A stretch of 64,000 nucleotides of DNA, from assembly GCF_001424545.1 (NCBI RefSeq), contig NZ_LMQL01000014.1, positions 1 through 64,000 on the forward strand, written 5' to 3'. Numbering within the stretch: position 1 is the first letter of the stretch; the number at the start of each line of letters is the position of its first letter. The notes below the pieces were generated by a model, which saw only the letters and a list, made by a program, of their open reading frames with translations, searched no databases and had not been told where the DNA came from. The translations under genes and the position numbers were made by a program. Below, piece by piece: positions 22,031-50,564 of the stretch. Source of the DNA: Ramlibacter sp. Leaf400 (GTDB lineage Bacteria; Pseudomonadota; Gammaproteobacteria; Burkholderiales; Burkholderiaceae_C).

Positions 22031-23008
22031 TCATGCCGTCCTCCCGCGCTGGAACAAGGTCCAGGGCTTCAACAACCGGTCCCGCCCGACCAGCACCAGC
22101 ACCACCAGGAACAGGCCCAGCCAGAACGTCCAGTACTGCGGCGTGATCGCCGACAGGAAGTCCTGCATCAGCTTGAACACGATGGCCCCCAGCACGCCGC
22201 CATACAGCCAGCCCGTGCCGCCGACAACCAGGATCAGCATCACGTCGGCCGAGCGGTGGAACTCGAAAACGTCCAGCGACGCGAAGCCCGTGGTCTGCGC
22301 CAGCAGCGCGCCGGCCGCGCCCGCCAGCGCCGCGGCCACGGTGTAGGCCACGGCGATGCGCGAGCCCACCGGGATGCCGATGGCCATGGCCCGCAGCCGG
22401 TTGTCGCGGATCGCCTGCAGCGTGCCGCCGAAGGGCGAATTCACCAGGCGGCGCGCGAGCAGGAAGAAGACCAGCAGCACGGTGAGCGAGTACCAGGCGG
22501 CCGTGCGGCCGGCCAGGTCGAACTCGAACCGGCCCAGCAGCGGCCCCATCACCACGCCCTGCAGGCCGTCGGCGCCGCCGGTCAGCCAGTCGAGCTTGTT
22601 GGCCAGCTCCAGCAGGATCAGCGCGGCGCCCAGCGTCACCATCAGGCGCGTGAGGTCGCTGCCGCGCTGCACGGTGAAGCTGGCGATGGCGCCCAGCACG
22701 GTGGCCGCGGCGATGCCCACGGCCAGCCCGACCAGCGGGTCCGGCAGGAAGTGCTTGGCGAACAGCGCCGCGGCGTACGCCCCGAAGCCGAAGAAGGCCG
22801 CGTGCCCCAGCGACACGATGCCGGTGAAGCCCAGCACCAGGTCGAGCGACAGCGCGAACAGCGCCACGATGGCGATCTCGTTGACGATGGCCGCGTACTG
22901 CGCCAGCACCAGCGGCGACGCGAAGGCCACCGCCCACAGCAGCGGCTCCCACAGGCGCCAGCGGGTGGCGCGCAGCAGCGAAGATCGGGCGCGTTCACCG
23001 GTCGTCAT
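22031..23008 (-). CDS. livM: Branched-chain amino acid-type ABC permease LivM
   Basis: The 325-residue membrane protein carries the permease signature GFTGIVSLGHAAFFGFGAYAAAL and the late GGTGWLYGGVLGAIVF segment typical of LivM. The ATG at 23008 overlaps the livH stop by four bases; the longer open frame upstream runs through livH and is not real. Confidence 0.92.
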   Translation of the reverse strand: MTTGERARSSLLRATRWRLWEPLLWAVAFASPLVLAQYAAIVNEIAIVALFALSLDLVLGFTGIVSLGHAAFFGFGAYAAALFAKHFLPDPLVGLAVGIAAATVLGAIASFTVQRGSDLTRLMVTLGAALILLELANKLDWLTGGADGLQGVVMGPLLGRFEFDLAGRTAAWYSLTVLLVFFLLARRLVNSPFGGTLQAIRDNRLRAMAIGIPVGSRIAVAYTVAAALAGAAGALLAQTTGFASLDVFEFHRSADVMLILVVGGTGWLYGGVLGAIVFKLMQDFLSAITPQYWTFWLGLFLVVLVLVGRDRLLKPWTLFQRGRTA

Positions 23009-23880
23009 GCCTTGCCTCCCTGCCGCACGAAGAGGCCCTGCGGCCGCCAGATCAGGATGGCGATCATCAGCAGGTACACGATGAAGGCGCCCATCTTGGG
23101 GATGTAGTACTTGCCCGCCACGTCGGCGATGCCCAGCAGCAGGGCCGCCAGCAGCGGGCCGGTGATGGACGAGGTGCCGCCCACCGCCACCACGATCAGG
23201 AAATAGATCATGAACTTGAGCGGGAAGCTCGGGTCCAGCCCCAGCACCTCGGCGCCCAGCGCGCCGCCCAGGCCGGCCAGGCCGCAGCCGAAGGCGAAGG
23301 TGGAGAGGAAGACGATGTTGACGTTGATGCCCAGGCCCGCGGCCACGCGCTGGTCGTCCACCGAGGCGCGCAGGCGGCTGCCGAAGCGCGTCTTCGACAG
23401 CACGTACTGCAGCACCAGCGTGAGCGCGGCGCACACCGCGATGATGAACAGGCGGTAGTGGCCCATGCCCAGCGTCCAGGCGCCGCTGCCGATCTCGGTG
23501 CGGCCCTTGAGCCACTCGGGCAGGTGGATGAACTGCTGGGTCGACCCCATGAAGTAGTCGACGCTCGCCACCGCCATGAAGGTCAGCCCGATGGAGAACA
23601 GCACCTGGTCCAGGTGCGGCTTGCGGTACAGCGGCCGGTACAGCGTGCGCTCCAGCACGCCGCCGATCAGCGCCGCGCCCAGGAAGGCCAGCGGCAGGCA
23701 CAGCAGGAAGGGCACGCCGGCGCGCTGCATCAGCAGCACCGTGATGTAGCCACCCGCCATGGCGAAGGCGCCGTGGGCCAGGTTGATGAAGTTCATCAGG
23801 CCCATGGTCACGGCCAGGCCCAGGGCCAGGATGAAGAGCAGCATGCCGTAGGCGATGCCGTCGAAGAGGATGGTGAGCAT
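23005..23880 (-). CDS. livH: Branched-chain amino acid-type ABC permease LivH
   Basis: The 291-residue permease starts MLTILFDGIAYGMLLFILALGLAVTMGLMNFINLAHGAFAMAGGY, the classic LivH N-terminus. The sense sequence just before the ATG is agcccctcca, with no Shine-Dalgarno motif; it is the end of the inverted heptamer repeat. This suggests coupling to or control by that structure. Confidence 0.93.
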   Translation of the reverse strand: MLTILFDGIAYGMLLFILALGLAVTMGLMNFINLAHGAFAMAGGYITVLLMQRAGVPFLLCLPLAFLGAALIGGVLERTLYRPLYRKPHLDQVLFSIGLTFMAVASVDYFMGSTQQFIHLPEWLKGRTEIGSGAWTLGMGHYRLFIIAVCAALTLVLQYVLSKTRFGSRLRASVDDQRVAAGLGINVNIVFLSTFAFGCGLAGLGGALGAEVLGLDPSFPLKFMIYFLIVVAVGGTSSITGPLLAALLLGIADVAGKYYIPKMGAFIVYLLMIAILIWRPQGLFVRQGGKA

Positions 23881-23883
23881 TGG

Positions 23884-23972
23884 AGGGGCTAGGGGCTGGG
23901 GGCTAGGGGCTAGGGTTCCGGAGGCAACGGACGGCTGTTTCCCTAGCCCCTAGCCCCTAGTCCCTAGCCCCT
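23884..23972. repeat. Inverted heptamer repeat between livK and livH (element A)
   Basis: Two 32-nt arms (23884-23915 and 23941-23972) made of about four copies each of the heptamer CTAGCCC or its complement pair with 30 of 32 matches around a 25-nt spacer. In the livK-livH transcript the G-rich arm comes first, with runs of three or four G separated by CTA, a quadruplex-type pattern. The spacer contains aacagccgtccg in the transcript sense, shared with the second element at 49382. Confidence 0.9.
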
Positions 23973-23998
23973 GCAAAGCGCGCTTCAGCGCGCTTTGC
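23973..23998 (-). promoter_or_regulatory. Hairpin enclosing the livK stop codon
   Basis: A perfect 11-bp stem gcaaagcgcgc/gcgcgctttgc with a 4-nt loop; the loop holds the TGA of livK. No T-run follows, so it is not a classical terminator. It abuts inverted-repeat element A. Confidence 0.85.
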
Positions 23999-25157
23999 CC
24001 GGATCCTTCACATCCTTGATCGCGTCGAACTCCACGTTCCACAGCTGGCCGTCCTTCTTCTCCACCTTGCGCAGGTAGATGGTCTGCACCACGTCGCGGG
24101 TCTGGGCGTCGATGAACACCGGGCCGCGCGGGCTTTCGAAGATCTGGCCCTTCATGCCGTCGACCAGCGCCTGGCCGCCGCCCTTGCCGCCGGTCTTCTT
24201 CAGCGCCTCGTAGATCACGCGCATGCCGTCATAGCCGCCCACGGCCATGAAGTTGGGGCGCAGGTTCTTGTTGGCCTTCTGGAAGGCCTCGACGAACTTC
24301 TTGTTGGCGGGCGAGGGATGGGCCGCCGAGTAGTGGTGCGAGGTGACCACGTTCAGGGCCACGTCGCCCATGTCGTTGAGCTGGTCGTCGTCCGTCACGT
24401 CGCCGGTGCCGATCAGCTTGATGCCGGCCTTGTCCATGCCGCGCTCGCCGAACTGCTTCATCACCGCGGCGCCCGCGCCCGAGGGCACGAAGACGAACAG
24501 CGCGTCGGGCTTGAGGTCGCGCACCTTCTGCAGGAAGGGCGCGAAGTCCGGGTTGCGCAGCGGCACGCGCAGCTTGTCGGCCACCTTGCCGCCGTTGAAG
24601 ACGAAGCGATCGGTGAAGTACTTCTCGGCGTCGATGCCGGGGCCGTAGTCGCTCACCAGCGTCACCACGGTCTTGATGCCGTTCTTGGGCGCCCAGTCGG
24701 CCATGCCCACCGAAGCCTGCGGCAGCGTGAAGCTGGTGCGCACGATGAAGGGCGAGGCCTCGGTGATGCTGGAGGTGGCCGCGGCCATCACCACCAGCGG
24801 CGTCTTCGACTGCGTGGCGATCGGCGCGACGGCCATGGCCGACGGCGTGATGCCCATGCCGGCCAGCACGTCCACCTTCTCGTTGACCACCAGTTCCTGC
24901 GCCAGCCGGCGGGTCTGGTCGGGCAGGCTGGTGTCGTCCTTGACGATCAACTCGACCTTGCGGCCGGCCACGGTGTCGCCGTTCTGCGCCACCCACAGGC
25001 GGGCGGCGGCCTCGATCTGGCGGCCGGTGGTGGCCTGCTGGCCGGTCATCGGCAGGATCAGGCCGATCTTGAACGGCGCGCCCTGTGCCCAGGCCAGGGG
25101 GCCGGCGGACAGCAGGGCGGTGCAGGCGGCGGCCTGGATCAGGGTTCTCTTTTTCAT
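23985..25157 (-). CDS. Liv-type ABC transporter substrate-binding protein
   Basis: The 390-residue precursor has a Sec signal (MKKRTLIQAAACTALLSAGPLAWA) and a type I periplasmic binding fold (FKIGLILPMTGQQATTGRQIEAAARLW, VSDYGPGIDAEKYF, GGYDGMRVIYEAL). It is the first gene of the transport operon livK-H-M-G-F and lies 158 bp from the GntR gene on the same strand. Members of this family in aromatic-degrading bacteria often bind benzoate-like acids, so vanillate or a relative is a reasonable candidate ligand (inference). Confidence 0.9.
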   Translation of the reverse strand: MKKRTLIQAAACTALLSAGPLAWAQGAPFKIGLILPMTGQQATTGRQIEAAARLWVAQNGDTVAGRKVELIVKDDTSLPDQTRRLAQELVVNEKVDVLAGMGITPSAMAVAPIATQSKTPLVVMAAATSSITEASPFIVRTSFTLPQASVGMADWAPKNGIKTVVTLVSDYGPGIDAEKYFTDRFVFNGGKVADKLRVPLRNPDFAPFLQKVRDLKPDALFVFVPSGAGAAVMKQFGERGMDKAGIKLIGTGDVTDDDQLNDMGDVALNVVTSHHYSAAHPSPANKKFVEAFQKANKNLRPNFMAVGGYDGMRVIYEALKKTGGKGGGQALVDGMKGQIFESPRGPVFIDAQTRDVVQTIYLRKVEKKDGQLWNVEFDAIKDVKDPGKAR

Positions 25158-28383: not shown

Positions 28384-29493
28384 ATGATGCAACTCCCCGC
28401 CCGCTACGACCACGTCGGCAGCTTCCTGCGGCCCAAGTACCTGCTGGAAGCGCGCGAGAAGAAGGCCCGCGGCGAGATCACCCCCGGGCAGCTGCGCGAG
28501 GTCGAGGACAAGGCGATCGCCGAGATCGTGAAGTTCCAGCAGGACATCGGCCTCAAGAGCATCACCGACGGCGAGTTCCGCCGCACGTACTTCCACATCG
28601 ACTTCCTCGAGCAGCTGGGCGGCGTGAAGACCGACATCCCGGTCACGATCAGGAAGCCCGACGGCACCGAGGAACTGGCCCCGCCGGTGATCCGCGTGAT
28701 CGACAAGGTGCGCCATGCCAGGGACATCCAGAAGGCCGACTTCGAGTACCTGAAGTCGCAGGTGGGACCGGGCCACACGCCCAAGGTGACCATCCCCTCG
28801 CCCACCATGCTGCACTTCCGCGGCGGCCGCGCCGGCATCAGCAAGCAGGCCTACCCGGAGCTGGACCCGACCTTCTACGACGACGTGGCCCAGGCCTACG
28901 GCGACGAGCTGCGCTCGCTGCACGCCGCCGGCTGCCGCTACGTCCAGATGGACGACACCAACCTGGCCTACCTGTGCGACGAAAAGATGCGCGAGGCGGC
29001 CCGCCAGCGCGGCGACGACCCCAACGAGCTGCCGCACCGCTACGCGAAGTTCATCAACAAGGTGGTGGCCCAGCGGCCGCAGGGGATGCTGCTGGCCATG
29101 CACCTGTGCCGCGGCAACTTCAAGAGCACGCACGCGGCGGCCGGCAACTACGAGCCGGTGGCCGAGGCGCTGCTCAAGGAGATGGACATCGACGCGTACT
29201 TCATGGAGTACGACGACGAGCGCTCCGGCGACTTCCGCCCGCTGCGCTACCTGCCCAAGGGCAAGACCGTGGTGCTGGGCCTGGTGACCACCAAGTTCGG
29301 CCAGCTGGAGGACAAGGACGCCCTCAAGCGCCGCATCGACGAGGCCGCGAAATACGCGCCGATGGAGCAGCTGGCCCTGTCGCCGCAGTGCGGCTTCTCC
29401 AGCACCGTGCACGGCAACAACATCGCGGTGGAAGACCAGCGCAACAAGCTGCGCCTGGTGGTGGAGACGGCGCAGGAGATGTGGGGCGCCTGA
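28384..29493 (+). CDS. MetE C-terminal-domain-like methyltransferase
   Basis: The 369-residue protein corresponds to the catalytic half of cobalamin-independent methionine synthase. Probable zinc ligands are in MHLCRGNF (His-x-Cys) and LSPQCGFSS (Cys). The N-terminal MetE half is absent, as in MetE-like proteins of unknown methyl acceptor or donor. It follows vanAB on the same strand across a repeat. A link to one-carbon metabolism from demethylation is possible but not shown, since VanAB yields formaldehyde and not methylfolate. Confidence 0.82.
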   Translation: MMQLPARYDHVGSFLRPKYLLEAREKKARGEITPGQLREVEDKAIAEIVKFQQDIGLKSITDGEFRRTYFHIDFLEQLGGVKTDIPVTIRKPDGTEELAPPVIRVIDKVRHARDIQKADFEYLKSQVGPGHTPKVTIPSPTMLHFRGGRAGISKQAYPELDPTFYDDVAQAYGDELRSLHAAGCRYVQMDDTNLAYLCDEKMREAARQRGDDPNELPHRYAKFINKVVAQRPQGMLLAMHLCRGNFKSTHAAAGNYEPVAEALLKEMDIDAYFMEYDDERSGDFRPLRYLPKGKTVVLGLVTTKFGQLEDKDALKRRIDEAAKYAPMEQLALSPQCGFSSTVHGNNIAVEDQRNKLRLVVETAQEMWGA

Positions 29494-29604
29494 CGGCGCA
29501 AGCCGTCATGCGTGGGGCGACTGACGGCGCAAGCCGTCATGCGTGGGGCGACTGACGGCGCAAGCCGTCATGCGTGGGGCGGCTGACGGCGCAAGCTGTC
29601 ATGC
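29490..29604. repeat. Tandem 31-bp hairpin repeats
   Basis: Three full units starting at 29490, 29521 and 29552 and a partial fourth at 29583 each contain tgacggc-gcaa-gccgtca, a 7-bp stem closed by a GNRA-type GCAA loop. The stop codon of the MetE-like gene lies inside the first unit. The fourth unit runs into a half copy of the dispersed REP-like element (about 29597-29625). Confidence 0.9.
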
Positions 29605-29972: not shown

Positions 29973-30059
29973 CGTCATTCCCGCGAAGGCGGGAATCCAG
30001 TGCTTTCGGAAGTCCGCTGAAGGCGGACGCTCTGGATCCCCGCCTACGCGGGGATGACG
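29973..30059. repeat. REP-like dispersed palindrome, copy 4 (subtype A)
   Basis: An 87-bp copy between the small lipoprotein gene and the convergent Bug gene. Confidence 0.85.
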
Positions 30060-30060
30060 G

Positions 30061-30108
30061 CGCGCGCTTGCTGCGGCGCGCGCTTGCTGCGGCGCGCGCT
30101 TACTGCGG
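30061..30108. repeat. Three tandem 16-bp units overlapping a gene end
   Basis: Units of cgcgcgcttgctgcgg at 30061, 30077 and 30093. The third differs by one base (cttactg), which creates the TTA that is the stop codon of the minus-strand Bug gene. Confidence 0.9.
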
Positions 30109-31086
30109 CTCCAGCCCCACCTTCTTCACCAGCGCCGCGTACTTGGCCAGCTCACGCCGGAACGCGGCCTGGGCCTCCTCGGGGCTGCTGATGTTGATGG
30201 TGTTGCCCTGCTTGGCCATCGCCTCCTTCACGGCCGGATCGCTGAAGGCGGCCACGACGGCTTCGTGGTTCTTCTTCACCAGGGCCGGGCTCATGCCCTT
30301 GGGCCCGATCACGGCGAACCAGGCTTCGACCGCGAAGTTGGACAGGCCCTGTTCCGCGAAGGTCGGGATGTCGGGCGCGGCCGGGGTGCGCTGCGGCGTT
30401 AGCGTGCCGATCGCCTTGAGCGCCCCCTTCTGGATGTGCTGCTGCACGCTGGGCAGCGCGGCGACGGCGAAATCGATCTGGCCGCCCAGCAGGTCGGTCA
30501 CCATGGGGCCCACGCCCTTGTACGGGATGTGCTTGGCCTTCAGGCCTGCCGCGTCCAGGTAGAGCTCGCCGGCCAGGTGCAGGATGGTGCCGTTGCCGCC
30601 GGACCCGAAGTTCAGCGAGCCGGGCTGGCCCTTGAGCACCGCCGCGAACTCGCGATGGTTGGCCGCGGACACCTTGGCCGGGTTGGCCACCAGCACCATG
30701 GGCGTGGCGCCCACCACCGCGATCGGCGTGAAGTCGTTCGGCATGTCGAACGGCAGCGACTTGAGCACGCTGGGGAAGATCACCACGTTGTTGGACACCA
30801 CCGACAGCGTGCTGCCGTCCGGCTGCGAACGCGCCAGCGTCTGCAGGCCCACCACGCCGCCCGCGCCGGGCTGGTTCTCCACCACCACGTTGGCGTTGAG
30901 CGCCTTGGACAGCGCCGGCTGCGCGGCGCGGGTGATGGTGTCGACGCCGGAGCCGGTGGCATTGGGCAGGACGAACTTGACGGTGCCCGACTGCGCATGC
31001 ACGGCCAGCGGCCACAGGCCGGCGGCCAGGGTGGCGGCGGTGGCGGCGAGCACCGTGCGGCGCGGAAGTCTCGGATTGAAGCTCAT
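30100..31086 (-). CDS. Bug/TctC-family binding protein
   Basis: The 328-residue precursor begins MSFNPRLPRRTVLAATAATLAAGLWPLAVHAQ, a twin-arginine-like leader. It continues with Bug motifs VKFVLPNATGSGVDTITRAAQ and VVVENQPGAGGVVGLQTLA. It probably binds a carboxylate in the periplasm. It sits downstream of the CoA-transferase and lyase genes on the same strand, so its ligand may be the acid that those enzymes degrade (inference). A longer upstream open frame is a shadow of the CoA-transferase gene. Confidence 0.9.
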   Translation of the reverse strand: MSFNPRLPRRTVLAATAATLAAGLWPLAVHAQSGTVKFVLPNATGSGVDTITRAAQPALSKALNANVVVENQPGAGGVVGLQTLARSQPDGSTLSVVSNNVVIFPSVLKSLPFDMPNDFTPIAVVGATPMVLVANPAKVSAANHREFAAVLKGQPGSLNFGSGGNGTILHLAGELYLDAAGLKAKHIPYKGVGPMVTDLLGGQIDFAVAALPSVQQHIQKGALKAIGTLTPQRTPAAPDIPTFAEQGLSNFAVEAWFAVIGPKGMSPALVKKNHEAVVAAFSDPAVKEAMAKQGNTINISSPEEAQAAFRRELAKYAALVKKVGLEPQ

Positions 31087-48236: not shown

Positions 48237-49358
48237 ATGAAATTCGCACGCACGCTGGTCACCGCTGCCGTGACCCTGCTGGCCGCCGGCGCGGCGGTGG
48301 CCGACATCAACATCGGCGTGAGCCTGTCGCTCACCGGTCCCGGCTCCGGCCTGGGCATCCCGATGCAGAACCAGTTCAAGCTGTTCCCCAAGGAGATCGG
48401 GGGCGAGAAGGTCAACCTGATCATCCTGGACGACGCCTCCGATCCCGGCAAAGGCGTGAGCAACGCGCGCCGTTTCGTCACCGAGGACAAGGTGGACCTG
48501 ATCATCGGCTCGTGCCTCACGCCCGTGGCGGGCGCCATGACGCCGGTGGCGACGGAAGCCAAGACCGTGCAGCTGGCCGCCTCGCCCGTGGGCGGCGACA
48601 GCCCCTGGCTGTTCCGCCTGCCGCAAGGCAACGACGTCATGGCCCACGCGATGGTGGAGCACATGAAGAAGCAGAACATCAAGACGATCGGCTTCCTCGG
48701 CTACACCGACGCCTACGGCGAACTCTGGCTCAAGGCCCTCACCCCGCTGGCCGAGAAGGCCGGCATGAAGGTGGTCGCCGCCGAGCGCTTCGCCCGCACC
48801 GACACCAGCGTCACGCCGCAGGCGCTCAAGCTGGTCTCGGGCAATCCCGACGCCATCCTGGTGGTGGCCTCCGGCTCCGGCGCCGCGATGCCGCAGATGG
48901 CCCTGGCCGAGCGGGGCTACAAGGGCAAGGTCTACCAGACGCACGCGGCGGCCACCGGCGACCTGATGCGCATCGGCGGCAAGGCCGTCGAGGGCACCTA
49001 CGTGGTGTCCGGCCCGGCCGTGGTCGGCCAGCAGCTGCCCGACAGCCACCCCTCCAAGAAGGCGGCGATCGACTTCTTCACCACCTACGAGAAGAATTTC
49101 GGCGCGCCCAACCAGTTCGCCGGCCACAGCTACGACGCCGCCATCGCCCTGAACAAGGCCGTGCCGATCGCGCTGAAGAAGGCCAAGCCCGGCACGCCCG
49201 AGTTCCGCTCCGCGCTGCGCGAGACCTTCGAGTCCATGGGCCGCACCGTGTTCGCGCACGGCGTGATGAACTGGACCAAGGACGACCACTGGGGCTACAC
49301 GAACGAGACGGGCGTGATGCTGAAGGTGGCGGACGGGAAGTTCGTGGTGGAGAAGTAG
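48237..49358 (+). CDS. Liv-type ABC transporter substrate-binding protein (second system)
   Basis: The 373-residue precursor has a Sec signal (MKFARTLVTAAVTLLAAGAAVA) and a type I binding fold (INIGVSLSLTGPGSGLGIPMQNQFKLFP, DDASDPGKGVSNARRFVTEDKVDLIIGS). Its location in the ferulate operon suggests a hydroxycinnamate or other aromatic ligand. The stop codon lies in a strong hairpin. An aggag site is about 10 bp before the ATG. Confidence 0.88.
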   Translation: MKFARTLVTAAVTLLAAGAAVADINIGVSLSLTGPGSGLGIPMQNQFKLFPKEIGGEKVNLIILDDASDPGKGVSNARRFVTEDKVDLIIGSCLTPVAGAMTPVATEAKTVQLAASPVGGDSPWLFRLPQGNDVMAHAMVEHMKKQNIKTIGFLGYTDAYGELWLKALTPLAEKAGMKVVAAERFARTDTSVTPQALKLVSGNPDAILVVASGSGAAMPQMALAERGYKGKVYQTHAAATGDLMRIGGKAVEGTYVVSGPAVVGQQLPDSHPSKKAAIDFFTTYEKNFGAPNQFAGHSYDAAIALNKAVPIALKKAKPGTPEFRSALRETFESMGRTVFAHGVMNWTKDDHWGYTNETGVMLKVADGKFVVEK

Positions 49359-49380
49359 TCCGCAAAGCGGACTGCTTCTC
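49350..49380 (+). promoter_or_regulatory. Hairpin enclosing the second livK stop codon
   Basis: A 14-bp stem (49350-49363 with 49367-49380, one G-U-type mismatch) closes an AAA loop. It includes the TAG of the binding-protein gene and has no following T-run. It abuts inverted heptamer element B. Confidence 0.85.
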
Positions 49381-49381
49381 G

Positions 49382-49517
49382 AGGGGCTAGGGGCTGGGGG
49401 CTAGGGACTAGGGGAACAGCCGGTCCGGGCCATGCCTTCCCTAGCCCCTAGCCCCTAGCCCCTAGCCCCTAGCCCCTAGCCCCTAGCCCCTAGCCCCTAG
49501 CCCCTAGCCCCTAGTCC
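49382..49517. repeat. Inverted heptamer repeat between livK and livH (element B)
   Basis: The left arm (49382-49414) holds about four GGGCTAG-type heptamers; the right arm holds ten perfect CTAGCCC heptamers (49441-49510) and one CTAGTCC. The G-rich arm precedes in the transcript and has four runs of at least three G. The spacer carries aacagccggtccgg, similar to element A. The region ends ten bases before the livH ATG. Confidence 0.92.
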
Positions 49518-49526
49518 CTTCCCCCC

Positions 49527-50564
49527 ATGGACCTCTCCATCGCCGGCATCCTCGCCCTGGACGGCCTCACCAATGGGGCCGTGTACGCGCTCCTGGCGCT
49601 GGCCACGGTGCTGGTCTTCGCGGTCACGCGCGTCATCTTCATCCCGCAGGGCGAGTTCGTCGCCTTCGGGGCGCTCACCCTCGCGCTGCTGCAGACCGGC
49701 AAGGTGCCGGGCACCGTGTGGTTCCTGCTGGTCCTGGCGGCCGCGGCTGCCATTTCCGACGTCTTCCACGGCGTGCGCCACCACCAGGCGCCCGGACGCA
49801 TCGCCCGGACGGTCGCCCGCACGCTCGCGATCCCCGTGCTCGTTTCGCTCATCGCCTTCTGGGCCGCGCCCAGGGGCTTCCCGCTGGTCGTGCAGGCCCT
49901 GCTCACGCTGGCCCTGGTCACGCCCTTCGGCACGCTCATCTACCGGCTGGCCTACGAAAAACTCGCCGACGCCTCCGTGCTGGTGCTGCTGATCGTCTCG
50001 GTCGGCGTGCACTTCGCGCTGGTGGGCCTGGGGCTGTACTTCTTCGGCGCCGAGGGCTTCCGCAACCCCAGCTTCTGGAGCGAGCGCTTCACCGCCGGGC
50101 CGCTCACGCTCAGCGGGCAGACGGTCATCATCTTCGCGGCCTCGCTCGCGCTCATCGTGATGCTCTGGCTCTACTTCGAGAAGACGCTGTCCGGCAAGGC
50201 ACTGCGCGCCACCGCGGTCAACCGCGTCGGCGCGCGCCTCATGGGCATCTCCTCCAACGGCGCCGGCCGGCTGGCCTTCACCATGGCGGCCTTCATCGGC
50301 GCGCTGTCGGGCCTGCTGATCGGGCCGACCACCACCATCTTCTACGACAGCGGCTTCATCATCGGCCTCAAGGGCTTCGTGGCGGCCGTGTTCGCCGGCC
50401 TCGCCAGCTATCCGCTGGCCCTGGTCGGCGCGCTGGCGGTGGGCCTGCTCGAGAGCTTCAGCTCCTTCTGGGCCAGCGCGTTCAAGGAGGTGATCGTGTT
50501 CGGCTCCATCCTGCCGGTGCTGCTGTGGCGCTCGCTGCGTGACCCGCACGGAGAGGAGCACTGA
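49527..50564 (+). CDS. livH: Liv-type ABC permease (LivH, second system)
   Basis: The 345-residue permease has the LivH opening ([39 protein letters not shown]) but carries an extra stretch of about 50 residues (around 70-125, [17 protein letters not shown]) compared with the usual 290-300 residues. The sequence before its ATG is cttcccccc, without any Shine-Dalgarno motif. Confidence 0.9.

What the first reader, a model, noticed from the sequence alone, without database searches (positions are those of the whole stretch)
49350..49526. livK-livH gap B: the same architecture at an unrelated liv operon
A second livK-livH pair, on the other strand and 25 kb away, has the same order: hairpin over the stop codon (14-bp stem), G-rich heptamer arm, spacer with the shared core aacagccg-tccg, C-rich arm, and a livH start without Shine-Dalgarno. 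The C-rich arm is expanded to ten perfect heptamers plus a variant. Two copies in the same gene context and transcript orientation argue for function in setting the ratio of binding protein to permease. The copy number looks slippage-prone.
Basis: partly seen in the sequence, partly recalled or inferred. Interest (0 to 1): 0.8.

Follow-up and report, generated by a model that had tools for sequence, protein, structure and literature searches.

The report
Dispersed heptamer-armed hairpin between operon genes
The odd repeat between two transporter genes is one copy of a small scattered DNA element with repeated seven-letter arms, and arms of the same kind flank the genes for one poorly understood protein in many unrelated bacteria, which gives a new lead on where such repeats come from.

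Summary
In detail: 49382-49519 is an inverted repeat with tandem-heptamer arms in a livK-livH gap. But it is not a liv device. The genome (probably Ramlibacter) holds at least 28 copies. Two sit in livK-livH gaps (of 8 such pairs); 25 of 28 lie between codirectional genes such as dnaK-dnaJ, rpsO-pnp, ftsH-folP, ybaB-recR. Arms are stereotyped: outermost base A in 53 of 54, four heptamers in 39 of 54. The copy in the carA-carB gap carries an ORF between the same arms: PF05635, the 23S rRNA intervening-sequence protein (IVP/S23). Among 25 genus genomes only two have IVP, and they have the most element hits. Across bacteria, IVP genes are flanked by arrays of 7-nt units, usually inverted: 71 of 136 loci against 6 of 136 control pairs, with 53 different units among 63. 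I read the finding as a short, ORF-less relative of an IVP element, transcribed as a long hairpin (likely an RNase III substrate), whose arms of about five motifs suit a pentameric protein. Mobility, RNase III cutting and IVP binding are inferred, not shown. Nine paper searches found no general IVP-heptamer link; one paper notes heptamers beside S23 in one 23S rRNA insert.

The parts
49382..49414 (+). 5' arm, G-rich: outermost A, GGGG, then four 7-nt units (second unit CTGGGGG)
49415..49438 (+). 24-nt loop, beginning AACAGCCGGTCCG
   Evidence: AACARCC at an inner arm end in 14 of 27 ORF-less copies
49439..49519 (+). 3' arm, C-rich, expanded to 11 units (39 of 54 parsed arms have four)
49350..49380 (+). 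hairpin over the livK stop codon; adjacent, judged not part of the element
   Evidence: not enriched before copies
48237..49358 (+). upstream gene, livK-type binding protein (PF13458)
49527..50564 (+). downstream gene, livH-type permease (PF02653)
23884..23972 (-). second copy of the same element (gap A), between livK 23985-25157 and livH 23005-23880

Best explanation
The feature is one short, ORF-less copy of a dispersed element family whose arms are inverted tandem heptamers. In this genome one copy with the same arms carries, between them, a single gene: a PF05635 (IVP/S23) protein. Shown: the dispersal, the shared arm design, the carrier copy, and the link between PF05635 genes and inverted 7-nt arrays in many phyla. 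Inferred: the elements insert between genes of operons, are transcribed with the mRNA, fold into a hairpin of about 33 base pairs that RNase III can cut (as known for 23S rRNA intervening sequences), and so do little harm. Inferred with less support: the ring-shaped IVP pentamer recognises the purine-rich arm, about five motifs spaced 7 nt apart, one per subunit, either to spread the element (with a host enzyme, since IVP has no recognised catalytic domain) or to control its own translation, its ORF starting directly after the 5' arm.
For: At least 28 copies, 25 of 28 between codirectional genes and 24 of 28 within 35 nt of both neighbours; 25 of 26 codirectional in G011. Outermost A in 53 of 54 arms, four units in 39 of 54. 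Carrier copy L055: the ORF starts at the end of the 5' arm and stops inside the 3' arm; PF05635 E 2e-36, TIGR02436, 2gsc/XCC0516 E 1.5e-26. Only 2 of 25 genus genomes have PF05635 and they rank first and second in element hits. IVP flanks in 136 loci: period-7 array in 71, inverted exact match of 12 nt or more in 68, direct in 17; matched control pairs in the same loci 6, 4 and 5 of 136. 5' arrays purine-rich 44 of 50, 3' arrays 9 of 47; array length peaks at 30-32 nt (27 of 97). Coxiella 23S insert: heptamers before S23, RNase III cut in the stem, S23 of Xanthomonas a homopentamer (PMC4990558, passages).
Against: No insertion event or target duplication was seen. IVP has no known enzyme activity. 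About half of the IVP loci (65 of 136) show no array at the threshold. The two arms of a copy are not more alike than arms of different copies (0.879 against 0.874, 1397 of 5000 permutations as high), so there is no sign that pairing is maintained by selection. The five-motif fit to a pentamer is a coincidence of lengths until binding is tested, and 20 of 97 arrays are longer than 45 nt. G000 and G011 share about 10 of 28 sites, so copies are also inherited or sites are reused. Ten of 80 loci have period-8 arrays.
Confidence: 0.6

Rival explanations
1. A liv-specific control element that sets the ratio of binding protein to permease.
For: Two copies in livK-livH gaps; 4 of 22 binding-protein genes have a copy 3' (P about 1.6e-5 with an estimated gene number); gap A and gap B are both occupied in G011 as well.
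Against: 26 of 28 copies are elsewhere and 6 of 8 livK-livH pairs lack it; 11 of 14 same-genus genomes lack it at gap B.
Confidence: 0.05
2. A host regulatory network: IVP is an RNA-binding regulator and the hairpins are its sites in many operons, kept by selection.
For: Operon gaps, stereotyped arms, a single IVP gene, some sites shared between species.
Against: Patchy in the genus: the sister of G000 (G013) and, in the carB tree, of G011 (G014) have no hits and no IVP; G001, G020 and G021 have copies but no IVP found (G001 is 81% complete); neighbours have no common theme.
Confidence: 0.2
3. Slippage-born G-quadruplex repeats with no tie to any protein.
For: Arms here have five G-runs; Rehm et al. 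(PMC4692102; abstract, passages and Discussion) describe such heptamers in Xanthomonas and Nostoc with a preference for four units, 70 and 75 inverted pairs in two Xanthomonas genomes, and G4 formation in vitro. Two arms here are expanded (11 and 10 units).
Against: Only 18 of 63 IVP-flanking units contain GGG, yet the layout is the same; slippage does not explain inverted pairs, a fixed outermost A, or the tie to PF05635.
Confidence: 0.07

Closest known systems
23S rRNA intervening sequences (IVS) encoding S23/IVP (PF05635)
   Same: Same protein family in the carrier copy; complementary ends that form a stem; in Coxiella also tandem heptamers before the ORF (PMC4990558, passages)
   Different: Sits between protein genes, not in 23S rRNA; 27 of 28 copies here have no ORF; many dispersed copies
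G-rich heptamer repeats of Xanthomonas and Nostoc (Rehm et al. 2015, PMC4692102)
   Same: Heptamer arrays, about four units, inverted pairs, gaps between aligned genes
   Different: Other unit; the paper's text has no hit for S23 or four helix; its G4 reading does not fit units without GGG
TAACTGA heptamers of Beggiatoaceae and others (PMC4679880, passages)
   Same: Intergenic heptamer sets with patchy distribution; no mechanism known
   Different: Reported as direct repeats (one indirect); no hit for S23 in that text
MITEs and REP/REPIN elements
   Same: Short dispersed palindromes between genes, with a coding relative
   Different: Arms are tandem heptamers; the coding relative has IVP, not a transposase
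TRAP-type ring proteins that bind periodic triplets in RNA (recalled)
   Same: Analogy only: ring protein and a periodic motif containing NAG
   Different: No relation claimed; 7-nt spacing, pentamer, inverted arms
Avd of diversity-generating retroelements
   Same: Weak similarity of the IVP to Avd-like models
   Different: Below both families' cut-offs; no retroelement parts looked for

Membership tests
23S rRNA intervening sequence (IVS) | Encodes a PF05635 protein | tested here: not met
   Not met for the window's copy (no ORF in the 24-nt loop); met for L055 only
23S rRNA intervening sequence (IVS) | Inserted in the 23S rRNA gene | tested here: not met
   Neighbours are protein genes
23S rRNA intervening sequence (IVS) | Complementary ends forming a stem | tested here: met
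   33-nt arms, 94% complementary; fold z -8.1
23S rRNA intervening sequence (IVS) | Excision from RNA by RNase III | not testable with these tools
   No RNA data
PF05635 (carrier copy L055) | Score over the family cut-off | tested here: met
   124.9 bits against 33.8
MITE | Terminal inverted repeats, many dispersed copies | tested here: met
MITE | Target-site duplication | tested here: inconclusive
   Looked at by eye at carA-carB and gap B only; none clear
MITE | Coding relative with a transposase and the same ends | tested here: not met
   Coding relative has only an IVP ORF; a transposase elsewhere was not looked for
REP/REPIN | GTAG or CGTC tag at one end | tested here: not met
   Ends are AGGG; the tag is known to me from an abstract start (PMC3733652) and recall
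REP/REPIN | RAYT (Y1 transposase) in the genome | not tested
   No search made
Avd (diversity-generating retroelement) | Score over the Avd model cut-off | tested here: not met
   PF22296 23.7 bits against 40; NF033474 26.5 against 80
G-quadruplex heptamer repeats (as a general class) | Unit with a run of at least three G | tested here: inconclusive
   Met in the window's copy; met in only 18 of 63 IVP-flanking units

The most novel reading that the evidence does not exclude
PF05635 proteins are the common cause of inverted heptamer arrays across bacteria: a class of minimal mobile elements made only of a pentameric four-helix protein and two arms of about five 7-nt motifs, which live in operon mRNA as self-processing hairpins. 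23S rRNA intervening sequences, cyanobacterial short tandem repeats and the Xanthomonas and Nostoc heptamers would be one family, the unit sequence drifting with the protein, the period of 7 and the count of five set by the ring.
Probability: 0.4. Interest if true: 0.9.

Novelty: new variant of a known kind. Interest (0 to 1): 0.78.

Why it matters
Heptamer repeats in cyanobacteria, Xanthomonas and Beggiatoaceae have been described with no agreed origin, and the PF05635 protein has no known function according to PMC4990558 (passage). A statistical tie between the two, seen in many phyla, gives each a testable partner. It would also widen 23S rRNA intervening sequences from an oddity of ribosomal RNA to one landing place of a broader element, and suggests a ring protein that reads motifs spaced 7 nt apart.

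Tried and rejected
The stop-codon hairpin as a regular part of the element: rejected, no more common before copies than at control gene ends. Co-evolution of the two arms: not seen. G-quadruplex as the general principle: 18 of 63 units have GGG. The core AACAGCCGTCCG as an independent marker: one exact hit in the genome, gap A itself; with one mismatch 23 forward and 14 reverse hits, against 17 and 18 for the reversed pattern, so no excess. Rfam: 67 matches in 48900-50000 at E up to 1, all below gathering score, 66 microRNA families and one IRES, which I take as chance on a G/C palindrome. One literature search was swamped by an unrelated acronym. My first control pairs (12 of 408) overlapped each other and, in loci where the gene lies near an end, the gene's own flanks; I replaced them by one clean pair per locus.

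Papers: PMC4692102 (abstract, passages, Discussion); PMC4990558 (passages); PMC4679880 (passages); other papers only as listings with the start of the abstract. Searches of this library (no preprints, few subscription papers) showed no statement of a general link between PF05635 and heptamer arrays; I judged this from titles, term counts and abstract starts.

Full report
1. Observation. The element at 49382-49519 is as described: two arms of tandem heptamers in inverted orientation, a 24-nt loop, and the next gene starting 7 nt later without a Shine-Dalgarno-like sequence. The 3' arm has 11 units where most arms have four. The fold of 49340-49540 is far beyond shuffles (-122.1 against -85.7 kcal/mol, z -8.1). 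Gap A (23884-23972, minus strand) is the same kind of thing.

2. Dispersal. Patterns searched in the window's own assembly (4.59 Mb, 15 contigs) give at least 28 copies. The lists were cut at 100 rows, so a few degenerate copies may be missing. With a simple codon-usage gene finder trained on the window, 25 of 28 copies lie between genes on the same strand, 1 is convergent and 2 divergent. In 24 of 28 both neighbours lie within 35 nt of the element, so the element usually is the gap. In a second species, G011, 25 of the 26 copies that one search listed are between codirectional genes. Background in the window: 43 of 58 adjacent pairs, or 25 of 39 with gaps of 10 nt or more; Fisher P 0.011 and 0.001 for the 50 of 54 copies of both genomes. 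Neighbours by Pfam include Hsp70-DnaJ, S15-PNPase, FtsH-pterin-binding enzyme, a six-S1-domain protein with an HU/IHF-type protein, YbaB-RecR, MreD-PBP, PhaC-thiolase, two type II/IV secretion ATPases, RNase PH and argininosuccinate synthase. Five of 28 copies adjoin genes of liv type (L031, L033, L045, L052, L053).

3. The liv question. The genome has 22 PF13458 genes over cut-off. Eight are followed by a livH-like gene and 2 of the 8 carry the element; two more binding-protein genes carry it before other genes. So there is an excess at the 3' ends of binding-protein genes (4 of 22; P 1.6e-5 with about 4300 genes, my estimate) but no livK-livH rule. At gap B in 14 same-genus genomes (best livH match; identity falls to 56% in G012): element in G000, G001, G011; a different GC-rich palindrome in G013 and G014; neither in 9. 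The livH tree (14 rows, G014 left out) needs at least two gains or losses; G013, the sister of G000, lacks the element.

4. Anatomy. Arms could be parsed in 54 cases. The base outside the first G-run is A in 53; the exception is a mis-parsed arm of L035. Four units in 39; the others have 0 (the same L035 arm), 3, 5, 6, 10 or 11. The second unit is CTGGGG(G/A) in 14 of 27 5' arms, a shared variant that points to common descent. AACARCC stands at an inner arm end in 14 of 27 ORF-less copies, 10 on the 5' side and 4 on the 3' side. Against a maintained pairing: the two arms of a copy are no more alike than arms of different copies. Because every CTAGGGG unit contains CTAG and 7 is not a multiple of 3, three units put TAG stops in all frames of both strands; in L055 the upstream gene ends in such a TAG.

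5. The carrier copy. In L055 the arms enclose a 124-codon ORF whose ATG follows the 5' arm directly and whose stop lies in the 3' arm. It is PF05635 (E 2e-36) and TIGR02436; the nearest solved structure is 2gsc, XCC0516. It sits between carA and carB, as in G011. In 41 relatives PF05635 is found, within the genus, only in G000 and G011 of 25 genomes (five of the 25 are 69 to 81% complete), and these two have the most element hits (99/74 and 62/38 forward/reverse; next 20/9; 17 of 25 have none). G035, of another family, has an IVP gene with GCAAGAG-type heptamers upstream and both orientations downstream. The closest named proteins are of Ramlibacter, so I take the window to be from that genus.

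6. The general link. I used 80 PF05635 loci from named genomes of many phyla (the best 80 of 590 candidates in a capped list, so biased to close relatives of the query) and 56 from a search of 398 Pseudomonadota genomes, 62 of which have the family. Self-match at lag p was scored in the flanks (match +1, mismatch -2, threshold 12). Period 7: 39 of 80 and 32 of 56. Other periods: in the first set period 8 gave 10, period 15 gave 3 and the rest of 2-13 gave 0 or 1 of 80; in the second set 0 to 2 of 56; period 14 follows as a multiple of 7. With equal 250-nt flanks, 71 of 136 loci have a period-7 array, 68 an inverted exact match of at least 12 nt and 17 a direct one; one clean control pair per locus gives 6, 4 and 5 of 136; after removing near-identical loci 69, 66 and 17 of 132. 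Some loci are from related species and are not independent. The 5' array is purine-rich in 44 of 50 and the 3' array in 9 of 47. Units are diverse, 53 distinct among 63, with a modest shared RRNBAGK tendency (information 3.55 bits; 60 letter-shuffled sets mean 3.02, largest 3.29). Array length peaks at 30-32 nt (27 of 97), the length of five 4-nt motifs at 7-nt spacing; 20 of 97 are longer than 45 nt. In 59 loci with usable neighbours, 39 have IVP and both neighbours on one strand. Six of 33 plasmid records with a hit were read, all cyanobacterial, and all six have a heptamer array; in Pseudanabaena (L067) the near downstream array is direct, not inverted. Two loci of the 56 carry a 23S rRNA-like motif nearby, by short motifs recalled from memory.

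7. Reading. The family looks like the intervening sequences of 23S rRNA, placed in operon gaps. In Coxiella the insert has tandem heptamers before S23 whose number differs between strains, RNase III cuts in its stem, and S23 of Xanthomonas is a homopentamer (PMC4990558, passages). The simplest account is an element that tolerates insertion in transcribed gaps because its hairpin is processed, with IVP binding the arm. Movement, its enzyme and its target choice are not shown. Of 28 sites, 8 have both neighbours and 2 more have one neighbour at a G011 copy, so about 10 are shared and the rest private. The carrier occurs in G000 and G011, which are not sisters in the carB tree (sisters G013, support 94/96, and G014, 100/98; many other forks unresolved). 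This fits repeated insertion, exchange or loss.

8. What is known. Rehm et al. 2015 described heptamers in Xanthomonas and Nostoc, noted inverted pairs, four units and aligned neighbours, and left function open. TAACTGA repeats are another set with no mechanism (PMC4679880, passages). A term search found no S23 or four helix in either text. Nine library searches showed no general link; preprints and most subscription papers are not held. The cyanobacterial label STRR is known to me from listings and recall.

Noticed in passing
window 29481-29604: Four copies of a 31-nt tandem repeat (96% match) at and after the end of the gene 28384-29493, itself containing a small palindrome.
   Followed up: no
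window 30058-30109: A 16-nt tandem repeat, 3.2 copies, 97% match, next to the gene end at 30100.
   Followed up: no
L203 (G013) and L216 (G014), gap before livH: The same livK-livH gap holds a different long GC-rich palindrome (GGGTGGGGGC ... GCCCCCACCC type) in two other species.
   Followed up: partly
L064 and L067: IVP genes lie between cas6 and cas4 on plasmids of Anabaena sp. 90 and Pseudanabaena galeata, with heptamer arrays.
   Followed up: partly
IVP loci: Ten of 80 IVP loci score for a period of 8 rather than or besides 7; the meaning is open.
   Followed up: no
L038 (G000:C3:263610-263704): One copy in this genome has mostly CGAGGGR units instead of CTAGGGR on both arms.
   Followed up: no
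Copies are over-represented directly 3' of PF13458 binding-protein genes (4 of 22), perhaps because these genes end in wide, transcribed gaps.
   Followed up: partly
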